From: Chloroflexota bacterium
GTDB taxonomy: Bacteria > Chloroflexota > Limnocylindria > Limnocylindrales > CSP1-4
Direction of reading: 5' to 3'
DNA: 20,571 nt
NCBI GenBank assembly: GCA_021785115.1
Contig: JAJYGO010000242.1
Coordinates: 1 to 20,571, forward strand
Part shown: in pieces, positions 1,124-13,634 of the stretch
How the letters are laid out: every line of letters begins with the position of its first letter
Position numbering within the stretch: the stretch's first letter is position 1
The notes under the pieces: model-generated
Seen by the model: only the letters and a program-made list of their open reading frames with translations
The model's database searches: none
What the model was told of the DNA's origin: nothing
Made by a program: the position numbers and the translations under genes

Positions 1124-2052
1124 CGCGCGGTCCTCGGCGTGGACGGGCGGGAGAAGCGGTTCCGCGCGAGCACCTCGCCGACCCGCACTGCCGACGCCGT
1201 CATGATGTCGAGGTTGCCAGCGTACGGCGGCAGGTAATCGCCGTGCCCGGTCACCTCGAGAAACACGGTCACCCTGCCAGCGCTCCTCCATCCGGGGGCA
1301 TCGAACGGTCCGTCATCGAACACCGGCGGTGACTTCAGGCGGTAGCCGGGGACGTAGCTCGCGACCTCGGCGACCATGGCCTGAACGGACGCCGTCACCG
1401 CGTCCCGGTCGGTGCCTGGGGGCAGCGCGCAGTAGACCGTATTCCGCATCAGGATCGGCGGCTCGGCGGGGTTGAGGACGATGATCGCCTTCCCGTGGGT
1501 GGCGCCGCCGATCGTCTCGAGGCCACGAGCCGTCGTCGCGGTGAACTCGTCGATGTTCTGGCGGGTCCCGGGACCGGCCGACCGGGAGGCGATCGTCGAG
1601 ACGATCTCCGCGTAGGGGACCGCGGCCACCCGCGTCACCGCGGCCACGATCGGGATCGTTGCCTGACCCCCGCATGTGATCATGTTCAGGTTGGGCCCGT
1701 CGAGATGCGCCCCAAGGTTCACTGGGGGCACGACGGCCGGGCCGATAGATGCCGGGGTCAGGTCGATAGCGACGATCCCGGCGCGCTCGTAGTCGGGGGC
1801 GTGGCGCCGGTGGATCGCCGCCGAGGTCGCCTCGAAGACGATCGCCGCGCCCAGCCGCTCGCGCTGGGCGAGCAGCCAGGGAACGCCGTCGGGGGAGGCC
1901 TCGATCCCCCAGCCGCGAGCCCGCGCCAGGCCCTCGGAGAGCGGATCGATCCCGACCATCGCGACCGGCTCGAGGACGGCCGAGCGGAGCAGCTTCCGGG
2001 CGAGGTCCGTGCCGATGTTCCCGGAACCCACGATGGCGACCGGAATGCGCAT
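1120..2052 (-). CDS. mhpF: Acetaldehyde dehydrogenase, acylating (MhpF/DmpF family)
   Basis: Converts acetaldehyde, NAD+ and CoA to acetyl-CoA and NADH, taking acetaldehyde from the partner aldolase. The 310-aa product matches the usual family length of about 310. It has the Rossmann motif [10 protein letters not shown] at residues 5-14 and the catalytic cysteine in MITCGGQAT (C127). The ATG at 2052 has a GAGGGA ribosome-binding site 7 nt upstream. A GTG at 2067 would add five residues and overlap the upstream UroD-fold stop as GTGA, so it is a real alternative start. The 3' end overlaps the aldolase start by 4 bp, so the two are probably translationally coupled. The pair lies at the end of a minus-strand operon beginning with an Ldh2-type dehydrogenase. 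Confidence 0.92.
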
Positions 2053-2063
2053 GGCCCGATCCC

Positions 2064-3281
2064 TCACACCGGCGGCTGCGCCGCGCCGGCCGGACGGACC
2101 GGCCCGAACGTCGCGACCCGCTCTGTAATCCGGGCGATCCGGTCGAGGTTCGCGGCGGGAGGCACGTTGTCGGACACGCCGAGGATCAGCCGCTCACCAG
2201 TCCCGAGATCGGCGAAGACCGCGTCGAGGTATGTCTCGAACTGCTCGTCGGACATGCTGTCGTCGAGCAGCGCGACGGACGGGATGCCTCCCCAGACCAC
2301 GGTGCGGTCGCCCATCCCGCGGCGGAGCTCGGCGAGGGTGTTGTCGACCATCGGAGCGGCGCAGACGGACTCCGCGACGTCGATCCGACAGTCCGGGAAG
2401 AAGGGCAGCAGCTGCCGGTTCTCCCCGTCCGCGTGGGTCAGGATGCGCTTCCCGCTCGCCCGGATCCGGTCGCCAGCCTCCCGCAGCCACGGCACGATCT
2501 CGTCCCGGAAGAAGCCCGGCCAGGTGACCTGCTGGTCGTAGTTGGCGCCCCACCAGACGACCTCCGCGTCGCACGCGACGACCGCGTCGAGGGCGGCCTC
2601 GAAGAACGGGCGAAGCCGGTCCCCGAACCGCTGGAGGGCTGCGAGGTCGTCCATGTAGAGGTACATGAACGCCTCCATGTCCATCAGATCATGGAGGACG
2701 AGGTGGATCGGGCCGGCCGCCACCGGGCCATTCGCGACGGCTAGGCCACTGTCACCGATCCGCGCCCTGAACGCCGCGTAGGCGCCCGGCGTCGGGACGA
2801 CCTCGAGGTGCTCGAAGACTTGGGCGACCGCCTCGAGGTCAGCCGGGCTCTCGATCGGGCGCTTCTTGACGGCGGGGATGGACTGCCCGTCGCGGCGCAT
2901 CGCATCGGTCATCTCTATGATCGACGTGACGTCCCCGGCCGGCGTGCGGATCGTCGATCGGTAGAGCTCCCCGTCGGACGTGAACTCGACGGGTAGCCCC
3001 GACACCTCCACGAGGTAGGGCGAATCGGGATGGTTCTCGATCCCGAAGCCGCGGAGCATCCACGAGCGTGGGCCCCTGGGTACTGTGAAGTCCGCCCGGA
3101 CCGCGTGGCAACCGAAGCCGAAATGCCGCGCGACGTCGACCGTGTTGGCGTTCGCGAGTTCGCGGGGCAGCGTGCCGCGCGCGCGCTGCGCGATGAGCCA
3201 CAGGTCCATCCGCGGCGTCCAAGGGAGCGCATCGGTAGGCGCGCCCGCGATCGCCGCCAGCATCCGTTCGCGATCATCCAT
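2064..3281 (-). CDS. UroD-superfamily protein 1 (putative methyltransferase-like)
   Basis: A 405-aa member of the uroporphyrinogen decarboxylase superfamily, which includes heme-pathway UroD and the zinc-dependent methyltransferases of corrinoid systems (MtaA, MtbA, CmuA). It starts [17 protein letters not shown], like the N-terminal (N/D)xRERxLAAL region of the methyltransferase-like branch. The usual H-x-C zinc motif is replaced by H283-A-D285-G-E, and the C-terminal cysteine position reads GVSDNVPP, so classical Cys-zinc activation of a thiol substrate is unlikely. The ATG at 3281 has a GAGGTG ribosome-binding site 4 nt upstream. It overlaps the end of the Ldh2 gene by 8 nt and is followed directly by mhpF, so it belongs to that operon. 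Function is unknown; a role in heme synthesis is unlikely given the context. Confidence 0.8.
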
Positions 3282-4482
3282 CGGGCACCTCGGACTTCCT
3301 TCCAGCTGCGATTCCCGACTCATCCGGTGCCGCCAGTCCGCCACCGTCGCTCACCGCGGTTGGAGCGGCCAGCACCCGACGCCAGTCCCTCGAGAGGGCG
3401 ACAGCATCGGCCACAGCACCGAGCATCTCGCACACGCTCCGGTGGAGCGGGATCTGGGACGCTCGCTCGAGCTCGATCCGTGCCTCGGGCTCTCCCGCGA
3501 CGAGGACCTCACCGTCCGGCCGCTCGGCGGGCACAGCCTTCAGGGTGTCGATGAACGAGTCGAGCCGGTCGGAGAACGCCTGCGTGGGGTCGAAGGCCGC
3601 CGGATCGAGCGCGAGGAACCAGTGCCCGACCCTCGACGAGCCGCCAACTGCGTAGAGGCTGCGGACGTCGAAGAGGGAGCCTGAGCCCGTGAGGACGCCG
3701 GTCAAGATGTCGACGGCCGCGGCGAGTCCGTACCCCTTGTGGCCTGAGGTGACGCTGCCGCTGCCGCCGAGGGGGAGGAGCGCACCGCCTTGCGCCGCCG
3801 ATGGATCGCTGGTCGGCCTTCCGCGCTCGTCCAGCGCCCAGCCGAGCGGCACTGTCTGGCTGAGGCGGCGGGCGACCTCGAAGCGGCCGCCCGTGACGAC
3901 CGAGGTCGCCATGTCCAGCAGGAACTCGGTTCGCCGTGCCGCCGGCGCGGCGAACGCGATCGGGTTCGTGCCCAGAGCACCCTTGTAGGAGCCGGTCGGC
4001 GCGACGATCGGGTCCGCGTTGGTGAGGGCCACACCGATCAGGCCAGCATGGACCGCCTGACGGGCGTAGGCGCCGGCTATCCCGAAGTGGGACGAGGCAC
4101 GGACCCCGACCGAGCCGATGCCGTGTCGCCGGGCGAGGGTGATCGCCCGGCGCATCGCACGTCGACTGACTGGGTGCCCGAGACCGTGGTCCCCGTCCCA
4201 AAGCTCGACGGCATGGCGCCGGCGAACGACCGTGACGTTCGGGCGGGCCGTCACCGTGCCAGTCTGGAGTGCCCGGACATACTGGTCCAGCCGACCGACC
4301 CCATGGGAGGCGATCCCCCGTCGGTCGGACAGGACGAGGACTTCGGCGGCGATCCTGGCATCCGAACGCCGGACGCCGAGCCGCTCGAAGGTACGCCGGA
4401 CGAAGCGTTCGAGCGCCTCCACGGGGACGAGGACCGTCTCCGGAAGCGCCTTGGGGTCCACGCTGAGCGAGTCGTGCTGCAC
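3274..4482 (-). CDS. Ldh2/malate dehydrogenase-family NAD(P)-dependent oxidoreductase
   Basis: Member of the Ldh_2 fold (ureidoglycolate, malate, sulfolactate and 2,3-diketogulonate dehydrogenases), which oxidises 2-hydroxyacids with NAD(P). Family motifs are IASHGVGR (H60), ASSHFGIAG (S131, H132), a long TNADPIVAPTG...GTNPIAFAAP segment and SGHKGYGLA. The GTG at 4482 gives 402 aa against a usual 340-360; the surplus is a low-similarity C-terminal tail. The start is uncertain: the frame is open back to 5103, but that region is antisense to the VOC gene and is not protein-like. An A+T-rich dyad shared with the 14.5-kb regulatory region lies 15-31 nt upstream of the GTG. First gene of the Ldh2-UroD-mhpF-mhpE operon; the substrate is probably a hydroxyacid upstream of the aldolase, which is inference. 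Confidence 0.82.
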   Translation of the reverse strand: MQHDSLSVDPKALPETVLVPVEALERFVRRTFERLGVRRSDARIAAEVLVLSDRRGIASHGVGRLDQYVRALQTGTVTARPNVTVVRRRHAVELWDGDHGLGHPVSRRAMRRAITLARRHGIGSVGVRASSHFGIAGAYARQAVHAGLIGVALTNADPIVAPTGSYKGALGTNPIAFAAPAARRTEFLLDMATSVVTGGRFEVARRLSQTVPLGWALDERGRPTSDPSAAQGGALLPLGGSGSVTSGHKGYGLAAAVDILTGVLTGSGSLFDVRSLYAVGGSSRVGHWFLALDPAAFDPTQAFSDRLDSFIDTLKAVPAERPDGEVLVAGEPEARIELERASQIPLHRSVCEMLGAVADAVALSRDWRRVLAAPTAVSDGGGLAAPDESGIAAGRKSEVPDG

Positions 4483-4496
4483 ATCCCTATTCTGGC

Positions 4497-4513
4497 ATAC
4501 GATATGTGATATC
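4497..4513. promoter_or_regulatory. A+T-rich dyad/operator-like box between ldh2 and VOC genes
   Basis: In the 108-bp divergent gap, ATACGATATGTG (4497-4508) runs into the perfect dyad GATAT-GTG-ATATC (4501-4513). The same 12-mer occurs at 14527-14538, with an 11/12 copy at 14551-14562. In DNA this GC-rich the recurrence is unlikely to be chance. The box starts 15 nt from the Ldh2 start codon, so a bound protein could block initiation there. The regulator is not identified, and I see no convincing -35/-10 pair in this gap. Confidence 0.45.
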
Positions 4514-4590
4514 TGCGGGTCGGGACGGCCGGTTCGCGCGGTCGACCCCGGCGGGCACCCTGCATTCGAGCGCTCGGTCGAGGGGACGCC

Positions 4591-5049
4591 ATGGTCGTGA
4601 GGCATCTGGGTCACGCGGGAGTGACGGTGGGCAACCTCGAGCGGTCGCTCGCCTTCTACGGCGGCCTGCTCCGCTTCGAGGCGCGGGCGCGACGCGTGAT
4701 CGACGAGCCCTGGCTCGCCCAACTCCTCGGGCTCCCCGAGGCCGTCGTCGACGCCATCGACTTGGCGGTCCCGGGCACGGGCGAGATCGTCCAGCTCTTC
4801 GAGTTCGTGGTCCCGAGGGACGCTGCCACGCGACCTGGGATGACAGTCCCCGGGAGCGTCCATCTCGCGTTCACCGTCGAGGACCTGGACCGGTTGCTCG
4901 CCCGGCTCGCGGCCGCCGGGGTGCCGCTGGTCGGGTCGCCCGTGACGATCACGTCCGGCGAGAACACGGGCGGCTCGCTCGCCTGCGTCCGCGACCCCGA
5001 CGGGATTGTGATTGAGTTCTTCGAGGCTCCACGGCGCTCCGCGAGCTGA
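4591..5049 (+). CDS. VOC (glyoxalase/bleomycin-resistance fold) protein
   Basis: Small 152-aa vicinal-oxygen-chelate fold protein with two beta-alpha-beta-beta-beta modules. The first begins HLGHAGVTVGNLERSLAFY and the second VHLAFTVEDLDRLLARL. It ends in the characteristic DPDGIVIEFFE strand. Probable metal ligands are H5 or H8, Q68 or E71, H91 and E142. Such proteins include glyoxalase I, methylmalonyl-CoA epimerase, extradiol dioxygenases and many lyases, so no reaction can be assigned. The ATG is preceded by GAGGGG about 6 nt upstream. It diverges from the Ldh2 gene and is followed after 2 nt by the PMT-family gene, so those two are probably cotranscribed. Confidence 0.82.
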   Translation: MVVRHLGHAGVTVGNLERSLAFYGGLLRFEARARRVIDEPWLAQLLGLPEAVVDAIDLAVPGTGEIVQLFEFVVPRDAATRPGMTVPGSVHLAFTVEDLDRLLARLAAAGVPLVGSPVTITSGENTGGSLACVRDPDGIVIEFFEAPRRSAS

Positions 5050-5051
5050 CG

Positions 5052-6356
5052 ATGGCCACCCAGCCGACGCCGAGACCTGCGCATCGCCTGGCCGGCCGGG
5101 CACGTCCGGGATTGCGTCGGACGCCGCTGCCCGCAGCTCTCACGGGGCCGAGGATCGCACTCGGACTAATTCTCCTCGCGGCGCTCGTCGTGCGCCTGCT
5201 CTGGCTCGGGAGCCCCAATGGGATCCTGATCTTCGACGAGCGCTACTACGTCAACGCGGCGCGGACGATCCTCGGCTGGCCGACCTCCTCCGGCATCTGG
5301 GCAGGGTCGCCAGTGGGGCTCGACCCCAATACCGAGCACCCGCCGCTCGGAAAGGTGTTCATCGCCGCATCCATGTGGATCTTTGGCGACGACGCACTCG
5401 GCTGGCGGGCACCGAGCCTGCTCGCAGGGATGATCGCGCTCGGCGCCGTCTACGGCATCGTGCGATCGCTCGACGGTTCGCCCTGGACGGCGGTCGTCGC
5501 CGTCGCCATCTACTCGCTCGACACCCTGTCGTTCATCCACGGCCGGCTCGGGGTGCTCGACATGATGATGGTCGCCCTCATCCTCCTCGGGGCCTGGGCG
5601 GCGCTGCAACGAAGGTGGGTCGCCGCTGGCGTCCTGCTCGCGCTCGGGTCGCTGGTGAAGGTCACGGCTGTCTTCGGCCTGCTCGCCGTGGCCGGATGGC
5701 TGACGCTCGACCTGCTCGGCCGCGTCCGCGAGCGGCACAGGCTCGCGCTCGCCGACCTGCGGCCGGTGGTCTCGGTCGTCGGGACCTTCACCGTGGTCGC
5801 GCTCGGCGGGCTCTGGGTGCTCGACCTCCGCTTCACCGAGTTCCGGACGCCGTTTGAGCACCTCTCCCGGATGTTCGGATACGGGCTCGGGCTGCACCCC
5901 GTCTACAGTTCGGACCAGATCTCCAGCCAGCCGTGGGAGTGGCTCGTCAACGGCGGGCAGTTCTCGTACCTGCGCGAGACTGCCGCGGTCGTCGCCGGCT
6001 ATGTCGTCGACGTGGACCCGCGGCTCGACTTCCACGCCCTGATCAACCCGGTGCTGATCGGCAGCCTCGCCCCGGTTACGCTCTTCGCGTGGGCGCGCGC
6101 ATGGCGTGAACGGGACCGGCTGGCCGGCTGGACGCTCCTGTGGATGGCGGCGAGCTACGTGCCGCTCATCGTGCTCGCCCTGGTGTCGGATCGCGTGATG
6201 TTCCTCTACTACGCGTTGCCGGTCATCCCGGGCCTTGCGATCGCCACCGCCGTGCTGCTTCGGCGCGCGCGCCTGCCCGACATCGTGACGTGGGGCTACA
6301 TGGCCGCCATGTTGGCCGCGTTCGTCGCCTACTTCCCGTTCCGGCAGCTGCCGTGA
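5052..6356 (+). CDS. PMT-family (GT39-like) membrane glycosyltransferase
   Basis: A 434-aa polytopic membrane protein related to dolichyl/polyprenyl-phosphate-mannose protein mannosyltransferases, which move a sugar from a polyprenyl phosphate to a secreted protein or envelope acceptor. After a basic N-terminus and the first membrane helix (about 35-52) comes the extracytoplasmic catalytic loop with F61-D62-E63-R-Y-Y, then E95-H-P-P-L-G-K101, both PMT hallmarks. About ten further hydrophobic segments follow. It lacks a C-terminal MIR domain, as is normal in bacteria. The start lies 2 nt after the VOC stop. It has no obvious metabolic link to its neighbours and converges on the corrinoid gene after a 26-nt gap. 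The exact donor and acceptor are unknown. Confidence 0.82.
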   Translation: MATQPTPRPAHRLAGRARPGLRRTPLPAALTGPRIALGLILLAALVVRLLWLGSPNGILIFDERYYVNAARTILGWPTSSGIWAGSPVGLDPNTEHPPLGKVFIAASMWIFGDDALGWRAPSLLAGMIALGAVYGIVRSLDGSPWTAVVAVAIYSLDTLSFIHGRLGVLDMMMVALILLGAWAALQRRWVAAGVLLALGSLVKVTAVFGLLAVAGWLTLDLLGRVRERHRLALADLRPVVSVVGTFTVVALGGLWVLDLRFTEFRTPFEHLSRMFGYGLGLHPVYSSDQISSQPWEWLVNGGQFSYLRETAAVVAGYVVDVDPRLDFHALINPVLIGSLAPVTLFAWARAWRERDRLAGWTLLWMAASYVPLIVLALVSDRVMFLYYALPVIPGLAIATAVLLRRARLPDIVTWGYMAAMLAAFVAYFPFRQLP

Positions 6357-6382
6357 AGCGCGCCCCCGCGTCGGGCCGCGGG

Positions 6383-7009
6383 CTACTGGACGAGGCGCTT
6401 CGCCAACTCGACCGCGGCGGCGGCGTCGGGGGCATAGCCGTCGGCGCCGATCTGATCGGCGAACTCCGGGGTCACCGGGGCCCCGCCAACCACGACCTTG
6501 ACGTCGCCGAGCCCAGCGTCGCGGACCGCCTGCACGACGTCGCGCATCCCGACCATGGTGGTCGTCAGCAGCGCGCTGATCCCGATGATCTTCGCTCCGT
6601 GCTCGCGCGACGCGTCCACGAACCGCTGGACCGGGACGTCGACCCCGAGATCGATCACCCCGATGTTTGCCCCGCGCCACATCATCGAGACGAGGTTCTT
6701 GCCGATGTCGTGCAGGTCGCCGTCGACGGTCCCGACGACGGCTGTGAACCCGGGCTTGATCCCCGCCTTGACGAGGACCGGCTCGAGGAGCGCCGCCGAC
6801 TCCTTCATCGCGCGCGCGCTGATCAGCATCTCCGGCACGTAGATCTCGTTGGCGCTGAACCGCGCGCCGGTCGTCGCCATGGCCGCGGTCATCGCGTCGA
6901 GGATCTCCTGTGGTACGACTCCTTCAGCGATCGCATCCCCCGTGACGCGGACCGCGGTCGCGCGGTCACCCGACTCGATGGCGGCGGTCAGAGCGTTCAG
7001 GTCGACCAT
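6383..7009 (-). CDS. Methyltransferase corrinoid (B12-binding) protein
   Basis: A 208-aa cobamide-carrying protein of the MtaC/MtbC/MttC type, which shuttles a methyl group between a substrate-specific methyltransferase and an acceptor methyltransferase. Residues 1-85 form the helical cap domain. The B12-binding Rossmann domain follows with D98-L-H100-D-I-G103, where H100 is the lower axial cobalt ligand, then G-I-S145-A-L-L and the G175-G176-A-P loop. Length is standard for the family (about 205-215). The ATG at 7009 has AAGGAG 9 nt upstream; an in-frame ATG at 7069 is less likely. It diverges from two UroD-superfamily genes across a 365-bp regulatory gap, which supports a partnership. It is the only corrinoid protein seen in the window; the substrate is unknown. 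Confidence 0.93.
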   Translation of the reverse strand: MVDLNALTAAIESGDRATAVRVTGDAIAEGVVPQEILDAMTAAMATTGARFSANEIYVPEMLISARAMKESAALLEPVLVKAGIKPGFTAVVGTVDGDLHDIGKNLVSMMWRGANIGVIDLGVDVPVQRFVDASREHGAKIIGISALLTTTMVGMRDVVQAVRDAGLGDVKVVVGGAPVTPEFADQIGADGYAPDAAAAVELAKRLVQ

Positions 7010-7171
7010 CGGACGGGTCTCCTTCACCTCGGTCGGGGCCGGAGCGGCCCCGAGGTGCCTGTCGGTCATGTCGGCCCGAGGGCCAGCCGCGCCCGGGCCG
7101 GCGGCGATGCGGATCGTAAGGCCGGGCCAGCGCACCCGAGTGGGCCGCAGGCCCGTTGTCGGGGGCCTAAG

Positions 7172-7190
7172 ATGGCCAGATGGCTTGACC
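7172..7190. promoter_or_regulatory. Predicted GntR operator, copy 1
   Basis: The 19-mer ATGGCCAGATGGCTTGACC differs at one base from the element at 14430-14448 beside the gntR gene. Half-sites GGCCA and TGACC flank a 7-nt spacer; this copy is an imperfect dyad (4 of 5 bases), while the other is perfect. It overlaps the -35 box of the promoter reading into the UroD gene at 7375, the position expected for a repressor. The assignment to GntR rests on the location of copy 2. Confidence 0.6.
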
Positions 7191-7213
7191 ATTTGATCGA
7201 CGGACGGTACCAT
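7185..7213 (+). promoter_or_regulatory. Sigma-70-type promoter for the UroD 2-UroD 3 genes
   Basis: TTGACC (7185-7190), a 17-nt spacer and TACCAT (7208-7213) match the -35/-10 layout. Transcription would start near 7220, giving a leader of about 155 nt before the ATG at 7375. The same layout recurs at 14443-14471. Confidence 0.6.
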
Positions 7214-7374
7214 CGGGATTGCTCGACGTCAACCTCCGCCGGACGCGACGGCTTGCGCCTGTGGGCCTTCCCGTAACAGCCGGCGTGTCGCGATCCGCCG
7301 CCCCGACCGGTGCGGAGCTCGGCGCAGAGTCGGCCCGGCACCGGTCCGCGGAACGGCACGACTCGGAGGTCCCG

Positions 7375-8544
7375 ATGGTGCGGTCAACGACGTGGCGCGG
7401 CTTCGATCTGACACGCCGCCTGGAGAGGATCGACCGGGCGTTCGCCATGGCCGAGGTGACGTCGCCCGACGACGTCCCGATCCTCGCGAACACGCCCTGC
7501 TATTTCGCCTTCTCGACCTTCGACAAGCCCGACGACTACTTTACGAACCCCGCCAGCATGGTCGAGTACCAGGAGCGCGGGTTCGAGCGGCACCTCGCCG
7601 AGATCGATGACGACGTCGTGCCCTACTTCATGCCCTGGTTCGGCACCGGCGTCCTGGCATCGGGGTTCGGGAGCCGGATCACGATCGCCGACGGACGGGG
7701 CAACGACCCCGCCGTCGCCGGACCGTGCATCACCTCAATCGCGGATGCTAGACGCCTGAAGATGCCCGACCCGGAGCGCGACGGATGGATGCCGCGCGTC
7801 CTCGCCGCGATCGACCACGCCCGCGGCCACAGCGACTTGCCGGTGGGGCTCACCGACATGCAGGGGCCGCTCGACACGCTCGGCCAGATGTGCGGTCAGG
7901 TCCAGCTCTTCACCTGGATGTATGACGAGCCCGCGCTCGTCCACGACTTGCTGGACCTCGTCACCGATGCGTTCATCGCCTGGGTCGGCGTGCAGAAGGA
8001 GCACATCGGCGAGCCCCGCGATAGCAGCAACGGCCTGCAGGGCGTCGGCGCGTCGGCGGTCGGCTGCTGGGAGTCCGACGACGACATGACGATGCTCAGC
8101 CCCGACATGTACGCCGAGTTCGTCGCCCCGCGCGTGGCGCGGATCTTCGACGCCTTCGGCGGCGGCAGCCTGCACTTCTGCGGCAAGGGCTACCAGCATC
8201 TCGAGACCATCCTCGACCACCGGAGCATGCGCGTGGTCAACAACTCGCCGATGGGCAGCTTCGCGGAGGTGGGGGCCTTCCGGCGCCGGCTTGGCGCAGG
8301 GGTCTCCCTCCAGATCCAGGACATCGCGCCGATCGACCTCGAGGGCTACTACCGTCGGCTGTTCGCGGAGCTGGATGACCTGCGCGGCGTGCTCGTGGCC
8401 CCGTTTGTCGTGGACGGGATCGGGATGGACGCGACTGGCGGCTACGTCGAGCGGACGGATGACCCGTTCGATGCCGCGAAGCGTCTCGTCGCGGTTGTGC
8501 GGGAGTGCATCGCCCTGAAGCTGGCCGGCCGGCCACTCGTCTGA
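7375..8544 (+). CDS. UroD-superfamily protein 2 (putative corrinoid-system methyltransferase)
   Basis: A 389-aa UroD-fold protein. The C-terminal half has the hallmark segment G-G-S-L-H267-F-C269-G-K-G followed by a helix, as in zinc-binding MtaA/MtbA-like methyltransferases. The second cysteine near the C-terminus of those enzymes is not evident (APFVVDGIGMD). The ATG at 7375 has a perfect GGAGGT 4 nt upstream, so the longer open frame from 7219 was rejected. It diverges from the corrinoid gene and is preceded by the predicted GntR-controlled promoter. It is followed after 64 nt by a second UroD-fold gene in the same direction. The likely role is methyl transfer to or from the corrinoid protein, but the substrate is unknown and this is inference from fold and context. 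Confidence 0.8.
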   Translation: MVRSTTWRGFDLTRRLERIDRAFAMAEVTSPDDVPILANTPCYFAFSTFDKPDDYFTNPASMVEYQERGFERHLAEIDDDVVPYFMPWFGTGVLASGFGSRITIADGRGNDPAVAGPCITSIADARRLKMPDPERDGWMPRVLAAIDHARGHSDLPVGLTDMQGPLDTLGQMCGQVQLFTWMYDEPALVHDLLDLVTDAFIAWVGVQKEHIGEPRDSSNGLQGVGASAVGCWESDDDMTMLSPDMYAEFVAPRVARIFDAFGGGSLHFCGKGYQHLETILDHRSMRVVNNSPMGSFAEVGAFRRRLGAGVSLQIQDIAPIDLEGYYRRLFAELDDLRGVLVAPFVVDGIGMDATGGYVERTDDPFDAAKRLVAVVRECIALKLAGRPLV

Positions 8545-8608
8545 TCGGGCCGGCCCACCGATCTACCGCGGCGGTCGCCCACGCGGGCACGAAGCTGGAG
8601 TCGAGATC

Positions 8609-9799
8609 ATGAGTGAACGGGTGAGCCCGGCGACGACCGGGACGATGACCGGCCGGGAGCGCGTGCTGGCGACTCTCAACCACAAGGAGCCCGACCGCGT
8701 ACCGATCGAGTTCGGATCGTCCCAGATCTCGAGCCTAGTAGTCGGGCGGCCCTACGGGTACGCGGCGCTGTGCGAGCTCCTCGGCGTGACGGACTACGCC
8801 GAACCGGAGATCAACTACTACCTGAACTCGGTCAAGAACGTGGACCAGCGGTTGATGCGCCGGTTCGGGGCCGATCTGCGCTGGGTGACGGCGGGCGCGC
8901 CGGAGGTCGTCCGGCAGCCCGACGGAACGCTCGTCGACGCCTGGGGGCTCGTGCTCACGCCGACCGGCACCTTCAACGTCGTCGAGGACGCGAACACGCC
9001 GCTGCGCGGGGCGTCGTCGCCCGCCGACATCGACGCGTACCCACTCTGGCCCGACCTCTCCGATCCTCGGATCACCGCCGGCAAGCGAGACGAGGCTGCC
9101 GCGCATCAGCGGGACGGGTACGCAGTCGTCGCATCGCTCGGGACCGGCGGCCGGCTCTTCCACAACTACTCGTGGTTGCGCGGGTTCGACAACTGGCTCA
9201 TTGACATGTACGAGAACCCCCGCCTCTACCATGCGCTCGCGGAGCGGATCCTCGAGGTCGGACTCGGCTACGTCCGGGCGTTCCTGCCGGCGGTCGCCGA
9301 CCACGCCGACCTCGTCTACATAGCGGACGACCTCGGGACGCAGCGCAGCACGCTGATGAGCCCCGAGGCGTACCGGACGTTCTGCAAGCCGTATCACCGG
9401 CGTCTGATCGCCGCGATCAAGGATGTCGCGCCGCGCGCGAAGATCCTGATGCACTCGTGCGGAGCCATCTCGTCCCTGATCCCCGACCTCATCGACGTCG
9501 GCGTCGACGTGCTCAACCCGGTCCAGCCGAAGGCGGCCGACATGGAGCCGCGCAGCGTGAAGCGCCGGTTCGGACGGGACCTGTCGTTCCTCGGGGGCCT
9601 CGACATTCAGGAGCTGCTGCCGTTCGGCTCGACCGACGAGATCCGCGCCGGTGTGCGCGACCTGCTCGACGCGTACGCACCCGGTGGCGGCTACATCTTC
9701 GCGCCGTCACACGAGATCCTGCCGGAGGTGAGGCCGGCGAGCATCGTCGCGATGTTCGACGCCGCGCTCGAGTTCGGCGGGTATCCGCGCGTCCCCTGA
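8609..9799 (+). CDS. UroD-superfamily protein 3 (putative methyltransferase)
   Basis: A 396-aa UroD-fold protein and the most typical of the five. It has the N-terminal MTGRERVLATLNHKEPDRVPIEF block, the D240-D241-L-G segment, M-H282-S-C284-G and V302-L-N-P-V-Q. Near the C-terminus GGYIFAPSHEI (360-370) has serine where homologues commonly have APCHNI, so the third zinc ligand position is altered. The ATG at 8609 has only a weak GGAG about 10 nt upstream; an ATG at 8645 just before the conserved TGRERVL block is an alternative. It lies 64 nt downstream of UroD-fold protein 2 and is probably cotranscribed. It converges on the SDR gene at 9877 across a strong hairpin. Confidence 0.83.
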   Translation: MSERVSPATTGTMTGRERVLATLNHKEPDRVPIEFGSSQISSLVVGRPYGYAALCELLGVTDYAEPEINYYLNSVKNVDQRLMRRFGADLRWVTAGAPEVVRQPDGTLVDAWGLVLTPTGTFNVVEDANTPLRGASSPADIDAYPLWPDLSDPRITAGKRDEAAAHQRDGYAVVASLGTGGRLFHNYSWLRGFDNWLIDMYENPRLYHALAERILEVGLGYVRAFLPAVADHADLVYIADDLGTQRSTLMSPEAYRTFCKPYHRRLIAAIKDVAPRAKILMHSCGAISSLIPDLIDVGVDVLNPVQPKAADMEPRSVKRRFGRDLSFLGGLDIQELLPFGSTDEIRAGVRDLLDAYAPGGGYIFAPSHEILPEVRPASIVAMFDAALEFGGYPRVP

Positions 9800-9839
9800 G
9801 GGCGCGTGGCGGCCGCCAGGGTGGCGCCGTGCCGGGCGT

Positions 9840-9866
9840 CCCGCGGATGCCGACGGGCACCGCGGG
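9840..9866. terminator. Bidirectional hairpin between convergent genes
   Basis: CCCGCGG (9840-9846) pairs with CCGCGGG (9860-9866). Inside it TGCC (9848-9851) pairs with GGCA (9856-9859) around a GACG loop, leaving one bulged A. It lies in the 77-bp gap between the stops of the convergent UroD 3 and SDR genes, where a shared terminator is expected. There is no T-tract, so termination efficiency is unknown. Confidence 0.6.
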
Positions 9867-9876
9867 CGGGAGGCTC

Positions 9877-10653
9877 TCAGGCCATGAGGACGCCGCCGTC
9901 GACGTTCCACGCCTGCCCGGTGACGACCGTCGACTCGGCGCTGGCGAGGTAGACGGCGAGCGGCGCGATCTCCGCGGGCTCGAGCCGGCGCCCGAGGGGC
10001 GTGATGCCCGCCTCGAACTCGGCGACGGTCACCCCGAGGCGGGCCGCGTCGTATTCGATCCGGCCCTGGTTCATCCGCGTGTTCGTGGACCCGGGGCAGA
10101 TCGCGTTGACGGTGACCCCGGAGGCGACGGTCTCCAGCGCGAGCGAGCGGGTCAGCCCGAGCAGGCCGTGCTTGCTCGCCGAGTAGGCGGCGCCATGGAA
10201 CGTCCCGATCTTGCCGGCGACCGAAGCGATCTGGATGATCCGGCCGTGGCGGCGCTCGATCATGGGTTTCGCCGCCCACTTCGACAGCAGGTACGGCACC
10301 GTCAGGTTCACGTAGAGGGTCTGCTCCCAGAACCCGTCGTCGAACTCCACGACCGGCCTGAGGTCCGCGCTGCTCCCGATCCCGGCGTTGTTCACGAGGA
10401 TGTCGATCCGGCCGAGCGCCCCGACCGCGGCGTCGAAGACCTCGCGAGCGGCCCCGCGGATCGCCAGGTCCGCGATCACGGTGTAGCAGCGCCCGCCGCC
10501 CCGCTCGATCTCGGTCTGCGTCGACGCCAGCCCGTCGCTGTCGCGGCCGGTGATCGCCACCGCCGCGCCCTCCTCGGCAAACGCCAAGGCGATCGCCCGG
10601 CCGATGCCGCGGCTCGCGCCGGTCACGAGGGCCGTCTGGTTCTCGAGTCGCAT
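9877..10653 (-). CDS. Short-chain dehydrogenase/reductase (SDR) 1
   Basis: Classical SDR of 258 aa (family about 250) that oxidises or reduces an alcohol/carbonyl with NAD(P)(H). It has the cofactor motif T11-G-A-S-R-G-I-G18, the structural N88-N-A-G91, N116, catalytic S144, Y157-S-A-S-K161 and the usual C-terminal VVTGQAWNVDGG. The residue after strand 2 (TGRDSD) is Arg, which often goes with NADP preference, though this is weak evidence. It is the last gene of the gntR-led minus-strand cluster, 27 nt downstream of UroD-fold protein 4. The context suggests oxidation of an imported sugar-like compound; the name 3-oxoacyl-ACP reductase that such genes often receive is not supported here. Confidence 0.9.
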   Translation of the reverse strand: MRLENQTALVTGASRGIGRAIALAFAEEGAAVAITGRDSDGLASTQTEIERGGGRCYTVIADLAIRGAAREVFDAAVGALGRIDILVNNAGIGSSADLRPVVEFDDGFWEQTLYVNLTVPYLLSKWAAKPMIERRHGRIIQIASVAGKIGTFHGAAYSASKHGLLGLTRSLALETVASGVTVNAICPGSTNTRMNQGRIEYDAARLGVTVAEFEAGITPLGRRLEPAEIAPLAVYLASAESTVVTGQAWNVDGGVLMA

Positions 10654-10680
10654 CGCCTCGTCCTCTTCAGCGCCAGGTCG

Positions 10681-11859
10681 TCATCCGTGGTAGGTCCCAT
10701 ACTCGCGGCCGGCCGCCGAGAACGCCTCGATGTTGGCGTATGGCGTGCCGTCGAAGAAGAAGTCGGTCGTCGAGAGGACTAGGTTCCCGCGCGGCATCGC
10801 CCGCTCGAGGACGTCCCTGACCCGCTCCCTGACCTCGACGGGGGTGGCGGTCACCAAGAACTCGACTTGGTCGATGTTGCCGCGCAGCGCCATCTCCGGG
10901 CGGAGGACCCGCAGCGCCTCATCGAGGTCCACGTCACCGAACGGCGGCGGGACGAGGTAGCCGAGGCAGTCGATCGCCATCTCGTTGTAGGCCGCCAGGA
11001 TCCGCGACGCCGTGCCGCAGTTGTGGTAGATCATCGGCACGCCCGCCTCGTGGATCCCGTCGATGATCCGCTTCTCGTACTCCATCACGTAGGTGCGGAA
11101 GAACGACGGTCCGACGGCGCTTCCGGCGAGGTTGCCGGCGACCTCGATCACGTCGGCGCCGCTCGCGACCAACTGACGGTTCCGCTCGATCGCCCACCGG
11201 GTGAAGAAGTCGAGCAGGCTCCGATAGAACCCGTCGTCTGCGTACGGATCGGTCATCAGGCTCTCGACGTTGCGGAACGTCGCGGCCTGGTTGAACGCCC
11301 CGTTGGTGCAGCTTGCCACGAGCCCGCGATCGCCGGTCGCCGCGCGGGCGCGCCGGACGAGGGAGCAGTCCATGGCGTCCGGCTTGGGCATGTAGCGCTC
11401 CACCAGGTCGAGGTCGGCCGGCGTCTTGATCAGGTACTCCTCGGGCGCGCAGACGATCAGGTACTTGGACGTCCGCTGGTAGACCTCGACGAGACGGAGC
11501 TGTCCTCCGGGGGTCGAGAACACGACCGTCCGGCGCACATCGCCGCCGCGCGCCTCGTCGGACACGGCGACGTCCCAGTCCTCGCGCGATTCGAGCAGCG
11601 TGCGCTCGGCCTGGGTGCTCCGGGCCGCCCAGTAGTCCCACACGCTGCCGAGCGAGTGCATGACGTCGAACCCGAAGCGGTCGCAGTACTCAACGAACTT
11701 CTCGATGACGTCGAAATCCGGCGGATCGAAGAAGGTCGCGACCTCCGGGACATAGTCGAACATCTCGTAGACGGCGTTGTAGTAGAGGAAGGGAGCAATC
11801 GGGACCCGGTCGGCCCGTCCGCCGCCCAGTGTTCGCAGAAGACGCTCGCGACCGTTCAT
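10681..11859 (-). CDS. UroD-superfamily protein 4 (putative methyltransferase)
   Basis: A 392-aa UroD-fold protein starting MNGRERLLRTLGGGRADRVPIAPF, the typical methyltransferase-like N-terminus. The metal-binding type motif I-Y-H279-N-C281-G is intact, followed by the LGYLVPPPFGDVDL segment and RGNID. The C-terminal third-ligand region reads VLSTTDFFFDGTP, without cysteine. The ATG overlaps the cupin stop by 4 bp (ATGA), so the two are translationally coupled. The SDR gene follows 27 nt downstream. A role in transferring or removing a methyl group from an imported compound fits the cluster, but no substrate is shown. Confidence 0.82.
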   Translation of the reverse strand: MNGRERLLRTLGGGRADRVPIAPFLYYNAVYEMFDYVPEVATFFDPPDFDVIEKFVEYCDRFGFDVMHSLGSVWDYWAARSTQAERTLLESREDWDVAVSDEARGGDVRRTVVFSTPGGQLRLVEVYQRTSKYLIVCAPEEYLIKTPADLDLVERYMPKPDAMDCSLVRRARAATGDRGLVASCTNGAFNQAATFRNVESLMTDPYADDGFYRSLLDFFTRWAIERNRQLVASGADVIEVAGNLAGSAVGPSFFRTYVMEYEKRIIDGIHEAGVPMIYHNCGTASRILAAYNEMAIDCLGYLVPPPFGDVDLDEALRVLRPEMALRGNIDQVEFLVTATPVEVRERVRDVLERAMPRGNLVLSTTDFFFDGTPYANIEAFSAAGREYGTYHG

Positions 11860-12344
11860 CTGTACTCCTGCCCCCCAGAAGGGCCGTCCGGCCGATCCGC
11901 CGGGATGTCAGCGGCGTCCTCCAGTGCCTCGTCGGGGAGGTCCTGGTTTGGGGCGACGATCGAGAGCCAGATCAGGGGGCCCGGGCCGGGCACCTGGATC
12001 CGATGCGTCACGCCGCGCGGCACGAACACCAGGCTCCGTGCGCCGGCGACGAAGGGGGGGTCGTCCCCGACCGTGAATTGGCCGAGGCCGTCGAGCACGT
12101 ACATGACCTCGTCGGCGTGCGGATGGCGATGCGGCAGATGCGGCTCCTGGCCGGCCTCAACGCGGAGGCGCACGATCCGGACGGAGTCGGACGCCACGAG
12201 AGGCGACCGCCGCGCCTCCAGACCGGGCTCGGGCGGCTCGCGGGCCGGATCGACGATGGTGGCATTGAGGGCTTCATCCACCGACACGTAGGGCAAGGCG
12301 TCCTCCTGGGCAGGGGCCTGTCGCGGTCCCCTCGATCGGGTCAT
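11856..12344 (-). CDS. Cupin-domain protein
   Basis: Single-domain cupin of 162 aa. Cupin motif 1 is seen as G65 followed by H72-R-H74-P-H-A-D-E79 and G86, and motif 2 as G101...P109-R-G111-V-T-H114, giving a full 3-His/1-Glu metal site (H72, H74, E79, H114). The conserved barrel covers about residues 50-135; both ends are polar and low-complexity. Such small cupins may be isomerases, dioxygenases or metabolite-binding proteins, so the reaction is open. The stop overlaps the UroD 4 start by 4 bp, so they are coupled. The ATG at 12344 has GAGGT nearby but with short spacing. A 108-nt gap separates it from the UroD 5 gene upstream. Confidence 0.82.
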   Translation of the reverse strand: MTRSRGPRQAPAQEDALPYVSVDEALNATIVDPAREPPEPGLEARRSPLVASDSVRIVRLRVEAGQEPHLPHRHPHADEVMYVLDGLGQFTVGDDPPFVAGARSLVFVPRGVTHRIQVPGPGPLIWLSIVAPNQDLPDEALEDAADIPADRPDGPSGGQEYR

Positions 12345-12452
12345 TCCACCTCGGCGTATCGGGGCGCCGTCAGCATGTCACGCTCGACCGGGTTTCTCGA
12401 TGGCCGACGCGTCCGCCACACCCGGTAGCGTCGGTCGCAGGCGGGAGAGCCG

Positions 12453-13634
12453 TCAGGCCGGGCCAACGAAGAGGCCCTCCGCGGCAGCCGTGCCCTCCGG
12501 GACGATGTCGACGTCGAGCATCAGCCCGCCCGATCGCACGTTCTCCGTGACGAGCGCAACCTCGCGCTCGGTCATGACGCCCATCACGATCAGCGGCTTG
12601 CGCGCCGCGATTGCCTGCAACCGCGGGATCAGCTCACCGATCGACGGCCCCGTCGGATCGATTGTCATCTCGATCGACCCTAGGCGCGGCAGGTCGAGCG
12701 CCCACTCGGCGAGGTGCCCAAAGGAGTGGGTGTGGAGCACGTGGTAGTCGAACGCGTCGATTACCGTCGACAGGGAGGGCAGCAGGAACTCCCGGAAGAT
12801 GGGGTAGGAGAGGTTGACCGCGTAGTCCTCTTGCGTCCGGATCGTGGTGCCGGGACTCCATAGGCCGTACTGGTTGCAGTAGCCGCCGGCGAGCGTCGGG
12901 AGCGCGTCGAGCTGGACTCGTGCCCAGTGGATGTACAGCTCGGTGATCTGACCGAGCAGCGACCGGAGCTCGCGCGGGTGGTCGTAGAAGCCGAGGTAGC
13001 AGCGTTCGACTCCGAGCGCGGCGACGAGCAGGTCGCCCGGGCCGCGGCTGATCATGTCGAGCGTCGGGATGCAACGTGCGGGGTAGTATCGGGCCACGAT
13101 GTAGGCGGTGAAGTCGAGGAGTTTCGCAAGCCAGTCGAGTCGTGGCGCGAAACCTTGGCCGGGCCGGGAGTACCAGTCATCGGCCAGGTACTCGACTGGC
13201 CACACTGTCTGAGAGACCGTCGAGATCCGCATCCCGCACCCGACGATCCCGACGAGCCAGGGCACGCGGTGATATGGGAACAGGGTGTTGAAGGTCGCCC
13301 GGCCGCGGGTCGGCGACCCACTGGCGAGCTTCATGGGCTCGGGCTGCAGCCGATCCGGCCAGACATCCTCCGGCCGGAGGATGTCGCCGTCGAGATCCAG
13401 CCAGTCATCTGGCAGCGCGGGCACGTGGCGGAAGCGCTGGGCGAGGCCGCAGTCGTCGTTGACGATCGCCTCGGTCGCCGCTCGCTGCCACCAGGCTGAG
13501 TGGAGGTCGATCAGGTCCTGATCCGTTGCGCCCGTCCAGCGGCGCGCCCCGATCGGATCGCGCTGCCCGACGCGGGACGCGTCCAGCGCCTCTGACCCCG
13601 GGCCCGGGCGATCGCCCAGAGACGAGGACGTCAC
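12453..13634 (-). CDS. UroD-superfamily protein 5, divergent, lacking the zinc cysteine
   Basis: A 393-aa protein if it starts at the GTG at 13634, which overlaps the gntR stop as GTGA; a GTG at 13691 would add 19 residues that do not look conserved. The fold is inferred from the overall pattern: an aromatic-rich N-terminal half, then GGYCNQYGLWSPGTTIRTQEDYAVNLS, a FREFLLPSL helix and a V-L-H301-T-H303-S-F-G metal-site-like segment, ending with LIVMGVMTE. The usual H-x-C is H-T-H here, with no cysteine, so any metal site is built differently. It resembles annotated UroD-domain proteins of sugar and polyol clusters, but similarity is remote. It is coupled to gntR and probably cotranscribed with it. 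Function unknown. Confidence 0.68.
   Translation of the reverse strand: MTSSSLGDRPGPGSEALDASRVGQRDPIGARRWTGATDQDLIDLHSAWWQRAATEAIVNDDCGLAQRFRHVPALPDDWLDLDGDILRPEDVWPDRLQPEPMKLASGSPTRGRATFNTLFPYHRVPWLVGIVGCGMRISTVSQTVWPVEYLADDWYSRPGQGFAPRLDWLAKLLDFTAYIVARYYPARCIPTLDMISRGPGDLLVAALGVERCYLGFYDHPRELRSLLGQITELYIHWARVQLDALPTLAGGYCNQYGLWSPGTTIRTQEDYAVNLSYPIFREFLLPSLSTVIDAFDYHVLHTHSFGHLAEWALDLPRLGSIEMTIDPTGPSIGELIPRLQAIAARKPLIVMGVMTEREVALVTENVRSGGLMLDVDIVPEGTAAAEGLFVGPA

What the first reader, a model, noticed from the sequence alone, without database searches (positions are those of the whole stretch)
2064..13634. Five divergent UroD-superfamily genes around one corrinoid protein: candidate new methyl-transfer catabolic module
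UroD-fold genes at 2064, 7375, 8609, 10681 and 12453 lie around a single B12 protein of the methyltransferase-partner type at 6383. They are too different from each other, and too many, for heme synthesis. In MtaABC-, MtbA- and CmuA-type systems, UroD-fold enzymes transfer methyl groups to or from corrinoid proteins. The window adds an importer, two SDRs, a cupin and an Ldh2 enzyme but no recognisable MttB-, MtaB- or MeTr-type protein and no reductive activator. The UroD-fold enzymes themselves may therefore hold the substrate-specific role, for example demethylating an O- or N-methylated sugar-like compound. The substrate is unknown.
Basis: partly seen in the sequence, partly recalled or inferred. 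Interest (0 to 1): 0.78.

Follow-up and report, generated by a model that had tools for sequence, protein, structure and literature searches.

The report
Sugar-linked vitamin-B12 demethylation gene cluster
A bacterium, probably of the phylum Chloroflexota, carries a gene cluster in which five distantly related enzymes of one fold appear to share a single vitamin-B12 protein, perhaps to strip methyl groups from an imported sugar-like compound; such a route for methylated sugars would be new, but no activity has been tested.

Summary
In detail: five divergent UroD-superfamily genes surround one corrinoid protein in a 19-gene window.

The five UroDs and the corrinoid protein are conserved at 73-85% identity in a Chloroflexota MAG that has its own HemE elsewhere. 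In a tree none of the five joins HemE, MtaA or CmuA.

Three lines support methyl transfer. (1) 65 of 120 listed U2 relatives are U2-corrinoid fusions in CmuA order. (2) A related genome has a U1 orthologue beside MeTr, RACo and corrinoid genes, two of which the window lacks. (3) Window-type corrinoid proteins sit near UroD-type genes (17 of 27 loci; MttB 1); 18 sampled more distant ones sit near MttB (15; UroD 3).

By motif, all five lack the His-Cys-Cys set of thiol methyltransferases. Sugar-type genes occur at 13 of 27 versus 0 of 18 loci.

Best reading: corrinoid-dependent O-demethylation of a methylated sugar or sugar acid, with MeTr and RACo encoded elsewhere. Methyl transfer is likely; the sugar substrate is inferred. 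A new variant of a known kind. No structure model or assay was possible.

The parts
5..1123 (-). DmpG, 4-hydroxy-2-oxovalerate aldolase
   Evidence: TIGR03217 520.5 bits, cut-off 286; Pfam HMGL-like + DmpG_comm
1120..2052 (-). DmpF, acylating acetaldehyde dehydrogenase; overlaps dmpG by 4 bp
   Evidence: TIGR03215 429.4 bits, cut-off 282.25; starts
2064..3281 (-). U1, UroD-superfamily protein; candidate metal set His283-Asp285-Asp371
   Evidence: PF01208 34.7 bits; orthologues in G001, G019, G006; the three residues kept in 120 of 120 listed sequences, one of them the window's own
3274..4482 (-). Ldh2-type 2-hydroxyacid dehydrogenase; overlaps the U1 start by 8 bp
   Evidence: PF02615 379.3 bits; overlap from coordinates
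4591..5049 (+). VOC/glyoxalase-superfamily protein, 152 aa
   Evidence: PF00903
5052..6356 (+). PMT_2-type membrane glycosyltransferase; role in the module unclear
   Evidence: PF13231; 74% homologue in L001 at another place in the cluster
6383..7009 (-). Corrinoid protein (methyl carrier), motif DLHDIG
   Evidence: PF02607 + PF02310; no NCBIfam corrinoid cut-off reached; motif
7375..8544 (+). U2, UroD-superfamily protein; candidate set His267-Cys269-Asp347; family fused to a corrinoid domain in relatives
   Evidence: PF01208 74.1 bits; 65 of 120 listed sequences are fusions; residues
8609..9799 (+). U3, UroD-superfamily protein; motif HSC, third Cys position reads FAPSH
   Evidence: PF01208 112.7 bits; motifs
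9877..10653 (-). SDR oxidoreductase 1
   Evidence: PF00106/PF13561; 72% in L001
10681..11859 (-). U4, UroD-superfamily protein; motif HNC, third Cys position is Asp (LSTTD)
   Evidence: PF01208 94.5 bits; motifs
11856..12344 (-). Cupin; overlaps the U4 start by 4 bp
   Evidence: PF07883; 65% in L001
12453..13634 (-). U5, divergent UroD-superfamily protein; candidate set His301-His303-Asp374
   Evidence: no Pfam hit; hhalign 98.1% with U2 family; residues
13631..14413 (-). GntR/FCD-type regulator; overlaps U5 start by 4 bp
   Evidence: PF00392 + PF07729
14677..15510 (+). SDR oxidoreductase 2
   Evidence: PF13561; 80% in L001
15504..16559 (+). ABC importer permease 1 (PF02653 type)
   Evidence: 75% in L001
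16714..17826 (+). Periplasmic sugar-type binding protein (Peripla_BP_4)
   Evidence: PF13407; 84% in L001
17913..19550 (+). Two-domain ABC ATPase of the importer
   Evidence: PF00005, two stretches
19552..20544 (+). ABC importer permease 2
   Evidence: PF02653

Best explanation
The cluster encodes the substrate-specific half of a corrinoid-dependent O-demethylation pathway for one or more O-methylated sugars, sugar acids or cyclitols. A sugar-type ABC importer brings the compound in. UroD-fold methyltransferases (U2 most surely, U1 and U3 probably, U4 and U5 plausibly) position a methyl ether for attack by Co(I) on the one corrinoid protein and differ in which substrate or methoxy position they accept. 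The methyl-corrinoid protein then passes the methyl group to tetrahydrofolate through an MeTr, and the carrier is reactivated by RACo; both would be encoded elsewhere in the genome. The demethylated product is oxidised by the SDR and Ldh2 enzymes and could be cleaved to pyruvate plus an aldehyde by DmpG, the aldehyde going to acyl-CoA by DmpF. Shown here: gene content, conservation, fusion and partner evidence, and the absence of a thiol-type motif set. Inferred: methyl transfer itself, its direction, the O-methyl donor, the sugar substrate, MeTr and RACo in the window's own genome, and the order of the later steps.
For: Fusion: 65 of the 120 listed U2 sequences (394 found; one listed row is the window's own) are about 617-651 aa proteins with the U2 domain first and a corrinoid domain second, 65 of 65 in that order and with DxHxxG; CmuA has its UroD part first and also matches corrinoid proteins. 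Missing parts found: in G006 locus L084 a U1 orthologue (53%) lies next to MeTr, RACo and a corrinoid protein 68% identical to the window's. G001 has two RACo proteins and four pterin-binding matches, of which the one at C45 passes the methyltetrahydrofolate:corrinoid methyltransferase cut-off (353 v 259 bits) while those of C90 and G006 match below it (178, 183). G001 C90 joins a 66% corrinoid protein with a pterin-binding protein, formate-THF ligase and FolD. Conserved set: G084 locus L121 has U4-like (29%), U2-like (38.5%), U3-like (32%), corrinoid (70%) and importer genes in one direction. Partner choice: UroD-type 17 of 27 and MttB 1 of 27 loci for window-type carriers, UroD 3 of 18 and MttB 15 of 18 for more distant carriers. 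Metal motif: none of U1-U5 is His-Cys-Cys, whereas MtaA, CmuA and the G001 C15 MtaA-like protein are; replacement of Cys is the O-methyltransferase pattern described in PMC10418091. Sugar context: sugar-type genes at 13 of 27 versus 0 of 18 loci; G001 flanks hold KDPG aldolase, pfkB kinase, SMP-30, MR_MLE, Gfo/Idh, FAH and DmpFG.
Against: RACo and MeTr are not in the window and the window's own genome is not held. U5 has no fusion or partner evidence of its own, and U4 only through a 29% homologue in G084. Two distant U1 homologues (37%) in G523 and G524 have no corrinoid gene on the stretches taken. The UroD enrichment is 17/27 v 3/18 (p 0.003), but without the divergent C90-type family it is 11/27 v 3/18 (p 0.11), and one branch of that family matches only the U2 profile well (84%; other UroD profiles 0.6-28%). 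Ten of 27 window-type loci have no UroD-type gene. MeTr, RACo and MTHFR are no commoner at window-type loci than at the others (11/27 v 4/18, 8/27 v 7/18, 8/27 v 6/18). The loci come from related genomes and are not independent, and some profiles were seeded from them. DmpFG and the VOC protein also fit an aromatic pathway. Zinc is not required by CdmB, a UroD-fold enzyme (PMC13222342, passages), so ligand swaps do not fix the donor atom.
Confidence: 0.58

Rival explanations
1. The module demethylates methoxylated aromatics (lignin-derived). The released catechol-type product goes through a meta-cleavage route ending in DmpG and DmpF.
For: DmpF/DmpG are lower meta-cleavage enzymes (role recalled) and a VOC protein lies nearby; known UroD-type O-demethylases act on methoxylated aromatics (PMC13222342, passages).
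Against: No ring-cleavage dioxygenase or hydrolase of that route among the Pfam matches of the 19 products; the VOC protein is only 152 aa and matches glyoxalase-type models. The importer is of the sugar type and 13 of 27 related loci carry sugar-type genes. G001 flanks are sugar-acid genes.
Confidence: 0.15
2. Only U2 (and perhaps U3 or U1) is a methyltransferase; the others use the UroD fold for another reaction on the same compound, such as decarboxylation or C-O lysis.
For: U5 has no partner evidence of its own, an unusual His-His-Asp set and no Pfam hit; U1 homologues in G523 and G524 lack a corrinoid gene nearby; UroD itself is a decarboxylase (recalled).
Against: U1 sits beside MeTr, RACo and a corrinoid protein in G006; U2-, U3- and U4-like genes recur with the carrier in G084; U3-like genes sit beside window-type carriers at several loci.
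Confidence: 0.17
3. The donors are methyl-sulfur, methyl-selenium or methyl-halide compounds, as in type 1 mlp clusters, MtsA or CmuA.
For: U2 fusion order equals that of CmuA; many UroD-fold methyltransferases act on thiols (PMC10418091).
Against: Thiol-type His-Cys-Cys is absent in all five by motif; no sulfur or selenium gene was recognised in the window; the quick tree places all five away from MtaA and CmuA.
Confidence: 0.07
4. Extra heme-pathway UroD copies.
For: One source names relatives 'uroporphyrinogen-III decarboxylase'.
Against: hemE model cut-off of 303 bits not approached (37.8 at most); G001 has a separate HemE, 412 bits by URO-D and 42.8% identical to E. coli HemE; the two HemE rows are one side of a fully supported branch without any of the five.
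Confidence: 0.01

Closest known systems
CmuA / Cmu chloromethane system (Methylorubrum extorquens CM4)
   Same: UroD part followed by corrinoid part in one chain, as in the fused U2 relatives; methyl group goes to tetrahydrofolate (recalled)
   Different: In the window U2 and the carrier are separate genes; U2 lacks the third Cys; U2 and CmuA align over only 153 residues at 23.5%; sugar context, five UroDs
Three-component O-demethylases (MtvB/OdmB/VdmB, MtoB) and CdmBCA
   Same: UroD-superfamily methyltransferase I, separate corrinoid protein, and in relatives MeTr and an activating enzyme; non-thiol metal motif
   Different: MtvB, OdmB, VdmB, MtoB and full CdmB sequences were not on hand, so closeness is untested; the window has five candidates per carrier, an importer and sugar enzymes, and no MeTr or activator next to them
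Type 1 mlp gene clusters (Kountz & Balskus, PMC10418091, parts 1-3 of 6 read)
   Same: Several UroD-superfamily proteins with one corrinoid protein, no MeTr in the cluster
   Different: mlp clusters require a Ram protein and one transcription direction, and their Mlps are His-Cys-Cys except several Mlps1; linked to Se/S; none of these three features is met here
MtaA/MtbA coenzyme M methyltransferases
   Same: Fold family; weak model matches for U2, U3, U4
   Different: Scores 31-75 bits against cut-offs of 235-600; third Cys ligand not present
P450-type oxidative demethylation of 6-O-methyl-galactose in marine Flavobacteriia (PMC10033563, abstract read)
   Same: Removes a methyl group from a methoxy sugar
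   Different: P450 monooxygenase, releases formaldehyde; no corrinoid

Membership tests
UroD superfamily | Match to PF01208 or profile homology to it | tested here: met
   U1-U4 over cut-off; U5 by profile comparison only; 3 of 46 U5 homologues carry a precomputed PF01208
HemE (heme uroporphyrinogen decarboxylase) | TIGR01464 cut-off 302.95; grouping with HemE | tested here: not met
   U3 37.8 and U4 37.5 bits; no listed match for U1, U2, U5; tree
MtaA/CmuA family (TIGR01463) | Model cut-off 235.4 | tested here: not met
   40.9, 64.8, 75.3 bits for U2, U3, U4; none listed for U1, U5
MtaA/CmuA family (TIGR01463) | His-Cys-Cys zinc set | tested here: not met
   Motif and alignment comparison only, no structure
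Type 1 mlp gene cluster | At least two Mlps, corrinoid protein and Ram protein in one direction within 2 kb | tested here: not met
   No RACo/Ram in the window; genes on both strands
Three-component corrinoid O-demethylase system | UroD-fold methyltransferase I candidate next to a corrinoid protein | tested here: met
Three-component corrinoid O-demethylase system | Methyl-corrinoid:H4folate methyltransferase and RACo activator | tested here: inconclusive
   Absent from the window; present in trans in G001 and beside a U1 orthologue in G006; window genome not held
Three-component corrinoid O-demethylase system | O-demethylation activity | not testable with these tools
   Needs enzyme assay
MtgC/MtbC-type corrinoid proteins | NCBIfam cut-offs of the corrinoid models | tested here: not met
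   181.7 of 370 (MtgC), 157.4 of 350 (MtbC) and 158.2 of 215.3 (TIGR02370) bits

The most novel reading that the evidence does not exclude
Chloroflexota use a modular corrinoid system for methylated sugars and cyclitols: one carrier lineage is combined with many UroD-fold methyltransferases, each specific for a methoxy position or sugar, and plugged into sugar catabolic loci; the window, with five, is the most elaborate example seen here. This would be an oxygen-independent route for removing methyl groups from plant and microbial O-methyl sugars, feeding tetrahydrofolate C1 metabolism.
Probability: 0.45. Interest if true: 0.78.

Novelty: new variant of a known kind. Interest (0 to 1): 0.62.

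Why it matters
O-methylated sugars are common in plant cell walls and microbial polysaccharides (recalled), and the one demethylation route that my searches brought up is a P450 reaction (PMC10033563, abstract). Ten text searches of an open-access library showed no title or abstract start about corrinoid-dependent demethylation of sugars; only the listed rows were seen, often the top of a longer set. If true, it gives a function to a large pool of proteins now named uroporphyrinogen decarboxylase (70 URO-D matches, some of them fragments, in one Chloroflexota MAG) and names the four-part set (U1 or U2 enzyme, corrinoid protein, MeTr, RACo) with which to test it.

Tried and rejected
Heme biosynthesis: rejected. 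Type 1 mlp cluster: rejected on its defining features. A phylum-wide search for U2 found G001 strongly and three others only at E about 1e-32 among 400 genomes (at most four candidates per genome were scored), and a class search for U5 only G001 strongly among 177 (two weak matches), so the full five-UroD cluster is rare in the species-level genomes searched. U1 at E 1e-130: 3 of 400 genomes of the phylum of G001 and 0 of 396 of the phylum of G523; G523 and G524 hold distant homologues (382.7 and 381.3 bits), 37% identical and without a corrinoid gene on the stretches taken (12 kb and 4.4 kb). A fused U2 protein was not found in 29 genomes of the class of G002 at E 1e-60. Viral contigs: none. 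Plasmid records: the fused protein matched only corrinoid parts in 12 records, U3 two records, U4 none. Solved structures: none for U2 alone or the U5 profile; the U2 profile matched MtaA at 5e-6; U3 and U4 matched UroD and MtaA chains weakly; U1 gave one chance hit at E 0.58. Substrate identification from the binding protein was not attempted. My ORF picker for fetched loci uses codon-position GC and first starts, so some gene ends there are wrong, and the stop-to-stop frames overstate gene lengths, so the 0 bp gaps are not exact. Comparison loci: one search lists 60 rows; 28 have 60% identity or more, 27 were used and one contig-end fragment (G010:C86) dropped; 32 have 44-53%, of which 18 were used (the highest-scoring, with G061:C132 skipped). 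Many stretches are short because contigs end (shortest 4.2 kb). Some profiles were seeded by G001, G006 and G019 loci; without the three G001 loci the counts are UroD 14/24 v 3/18 (p 0.011) and sugar-type genes 10/24 v 0/18 (p 0.002). 'UroD-type' means 40 bits or more; L135 is weak (46 bits at a contig end). Window-type loci without a UroD-type gene are 10 of 27: L117 (corrinoid and MeTr on a 4.5 kb contig), six corrinoid-MeTr-MTHFR-RACo sets (L118-L120, L122-L124), one with MttB (L126), one with the corrinoid gene 0.8 kb from the contig end (L130), one with FolD-FTHFS-MTHFR-MeTr (L133). The tree is a quick one on 348 of 1318 columns with long branches and a few over-long rows; its U1-U4 and U2-U5 groupings are weak.

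Full report
What is there. The 20.6 kb window is GC-rich (66-73% per kb over the first 20 kb) and holds 19 genes. On the minus strand, Ldh2, U1, DmpF and DmpG form a tight run (overlap 8 bp, gap 11 bp, overlap 4 bp), and GntR, U5, cupin, U4 and SDR1 a second (GntR-U5 and cupin-U4 overlap by 4 bp; U5-cupin gap 108 bp, U4-SDR1 gap 27 bp). The corrinoid gene lies divergently from U2-U3, 365 bp apart. SDR2 and the importer run on the plus strand (coordinates, starts chosen by me). No Rfam match reached its gathering score.

The five are UroD-superfamily proteins but not HemE. U1-U4 pass Pfam's cut-off; U5 does not. The U5 family matches the U2 family at 98.1%, a MtaA/HemE profile at 95.9% and U3 at 81.9%, but U1 at only 1.7%; five control profiles give at most 0.2%. 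The hemE, MtaA, MtbA and MtaA/CmuA models are far from their cut-offs. In a quick 62-row tree U1, U2, U3 and U5 each fall in a starred clade (99-100) with the G001 orthologue, U4 in one at 89 (100 with its orthologue), and the two HemE rows stand apart at 100. G001 has seven URO-D matches, one of them a HemE at 412 bits on another contig.

Conservation. A scan of genome contigs with the U5 family gave five loci; one is close, L001, in 'Chloroflexi bacterium isolate BP4.bin83' (75%; the others 28-47%). There U5, U4, U3, U2, corrinoid protein, cupin, both SDRs, GntR, an importer permease, binding protein and ATPase are kept at 65-85% identity; the Ldh2 homologue is only 47%. The U1 orthologue (76%) lies on the same contig, as do permease 2 (73%), DmpF (82%) and DmpG (87%), the last two about 36 kb from U1. 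By matching contig lengths among close U1, U2 and U5 homologues, eight contigs carry at least two of the three and four carry all three; this is indirect. The U1 family is widespread: 120 of 558 homologues were listed, at 57% identity or more, and the few with names include Nitrospinota, Verrucomicrobia and Acidobacteriota.

Link to the corrinoid protein. (a) 65 of the 120 listed U2 sequences (394 found) are fusions, U2 domain first and corrinoid domain second in all 65, all with DxHxxG; CmuA of strain CM4 was fetched for comparison. (b) In G006 a U1 orthologue (53%; no Pfam family at 1e-5) stands beside MeTr, RACo and a 68% corrinoid protein, and it is the only UroD-type gene found on that 20 kb. 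In G019 a U1 orthologue (57%), two U3-like genes, a 68% corrinoid protein, an SMP-30 protein, two transaldolase-type genes and an importer are together. (c) In G084 U4-, U2- and U3-like genes, a 70% corrinoid protein and importer genes run in one direction. (d) Across 177 genomes of the class, 41 carried a match to the corrinoid protein at E 1e-45. Of 27 loci at 60% identity or more, 17 have a UroD-type gene, one MttB, nine neither; of 18 sampled loci at 45-53%, three have UroD and 15 MttB. Six of the 17 rest on the C90-type family alone, which has no Pfam hit. One branch of it matches the U2 profile at 95.7% and three other UroD profiles at 84-89% (U1 50%); the other branch matches U2 at 84.2% and the rest at 0.6-28%; controls are 0.5% or less. 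Without that family the UroD contrast alone is not significant (11/27 v 3/18, p 0.11), while the UroD-versus-MttB split stays strong (11:1 v 3:15, p 9e-5). MeTr, RACo and MTHFR frequencies do not differ between the two sets. Related genomes are not independent samples.

Where the methyl group goes. G001 has two RACo proteins and four pterin-binding matches. The strongest (239 bits, C111) I take to be the folate enzyme FolP, untested. The one at C45 passes the methyltetrahydrofolate:corrinoid methyltransferase cut-off (353 of 259 bits); those of C90 and of G006 match that model below the cut-off (178 and 183); the one at C33 was not scanned. G001 C90 joins a 66% corrinoid protein, a pterin-binding protein, formate-tetrahydrofolate ligase and FolD. 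Six class loci have the window-type corrinoid protein in a corrinoid-MeTr-MTHFR-RACo set without a UroD gene. The expected route is methyl-corrinoid to methyl-tetrahydrofolate. This is inferred for the window, whose genome is not held.

What kind of methyl donor. In thiol methyltransferases of this superfamily the metal set is His-Cys-Cys; in O-methyl enzymes one or both Cys are replaced (PMC10418091, parts 1-3 of 6 read). MtaA, CmuA and the G001 C15 MtaA-like protein show HxC and a later Cys. The window proteins show His-Asp/Asp (U1), His-Cys/Asp (U2), His-Cys and no Cys at the third place (U3), His-Cys/Asp (U4) and His-His/Asp (U5). For U1 the residues are kept in 120 of 120 listed sequences, for U2 in 120, 120 and 118 of 120 (each list includes the window's own protein), for U5 in 44, 44 and 42 of 46. 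U3 and U4 were compared closely only with their G001 orthologues. That these residues bind metal is inference. CdmB, a UroD-fold chloromethane enzyme, works without zinc (PMC13222342, passages only).

Why a sugar. The importer is of the sugar type. G001 flanks carry KDPG aldolase, a pfkB kinase, Gfo/Idh enzymes, an MR_MLE-family protein, SMP-30 lactonase, FAH, 2-oxoacid dehydrogenase subunits and DmpFG. The second G001 carrier locus has KDPG aldolase, ROK, SIS and PTE genes. A U3-like gene (33%) on a Chloroflexota plasmid lies among Gfo/Idh, sugar isomerase, ROK, deoC and sugar ABC genes. Over the class, 13 of 27 window-type loci and 0 of 18 others have such genes, importer permeases and LacI-type regulators included; single gene types are mostly too few to test. 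In the window the Ldh2-U1-DmpF-DmpG run suggests that the U1 product is a 2,4-dihydroxy acid, oxidised at C2 and then cleaved to pyruvate and an aldehyde; this is a guess from enzyme classes. Aromatic methyl ethers remain the main rival donor because DmpFG end the meta-cleavage route.

Literature. Ten searches showed no corrinoid route for sugars in the rows listed (titles and abstract starts; several lists are the top of longer sets, and one search found no paper). The library is open-access only, so absence there is weak. PMC11650866 (passages) mentions methylamine and methanol methyltransferases in Chloroflexota; the term uroporphyrinogen does not occur in it.

Verdict. A real, conserved, corrinoid-linked UroD cluster, probably O-demethylating, probably on sugar-like compounds; I put methyl transfer at about 0.85 and an O-methyl sugar-like substrate at 0.55-0.6. 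A new variant of a known kind.

Noticed in passing
G002 (genome of L002): One Chloroflexota MAG has 70 URO-D matches, some of them fragments, with one locus (L067) holding UroD, corrinoid protein, RACo, a pterin-binding protein (by position) and a homocysteine S-methyltransferase-type gene.
   Followed up: partly
L066 (G001:C90) and L127-L132: A recurring locus in which a window-type corrinoid protein lies with Gfo/Idh, xylose-isomerase-like, LacI or sugar ABC genes and mostly a UroD-like family without Pfam hit; looks like a second sugar or cyclitol version of the same idea.
   Followed up: partly
window 5052-6356: A PMT_2 membrane glycosyltransferase sits between VOC and corrinoid genes; in L001 a 74% homologue lies between two binding-protein genes that both match the window's at 84%. 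Its role is unexplained.
   Followed up: no
L036:7983-8357: A short DmpF-like ORF (124 aa, 76%) about 8.5 kb from the G001 U1 gene, besides a fuller DmpFG pair on the same contig; looks like a remnant.
   Followed up: no
window 12453-13634: The protein searches listed the window's own U1 and U2 at 100% (longest contig 88,130 bases) but no identical U5 (best 78%).
   Followed up: no
L036:18808-19917, L040:7402-8508: Two proteins without Pfam hits at 1e-5 lie within the G001 UroD/corrinoid clusters.
   Followed up: no
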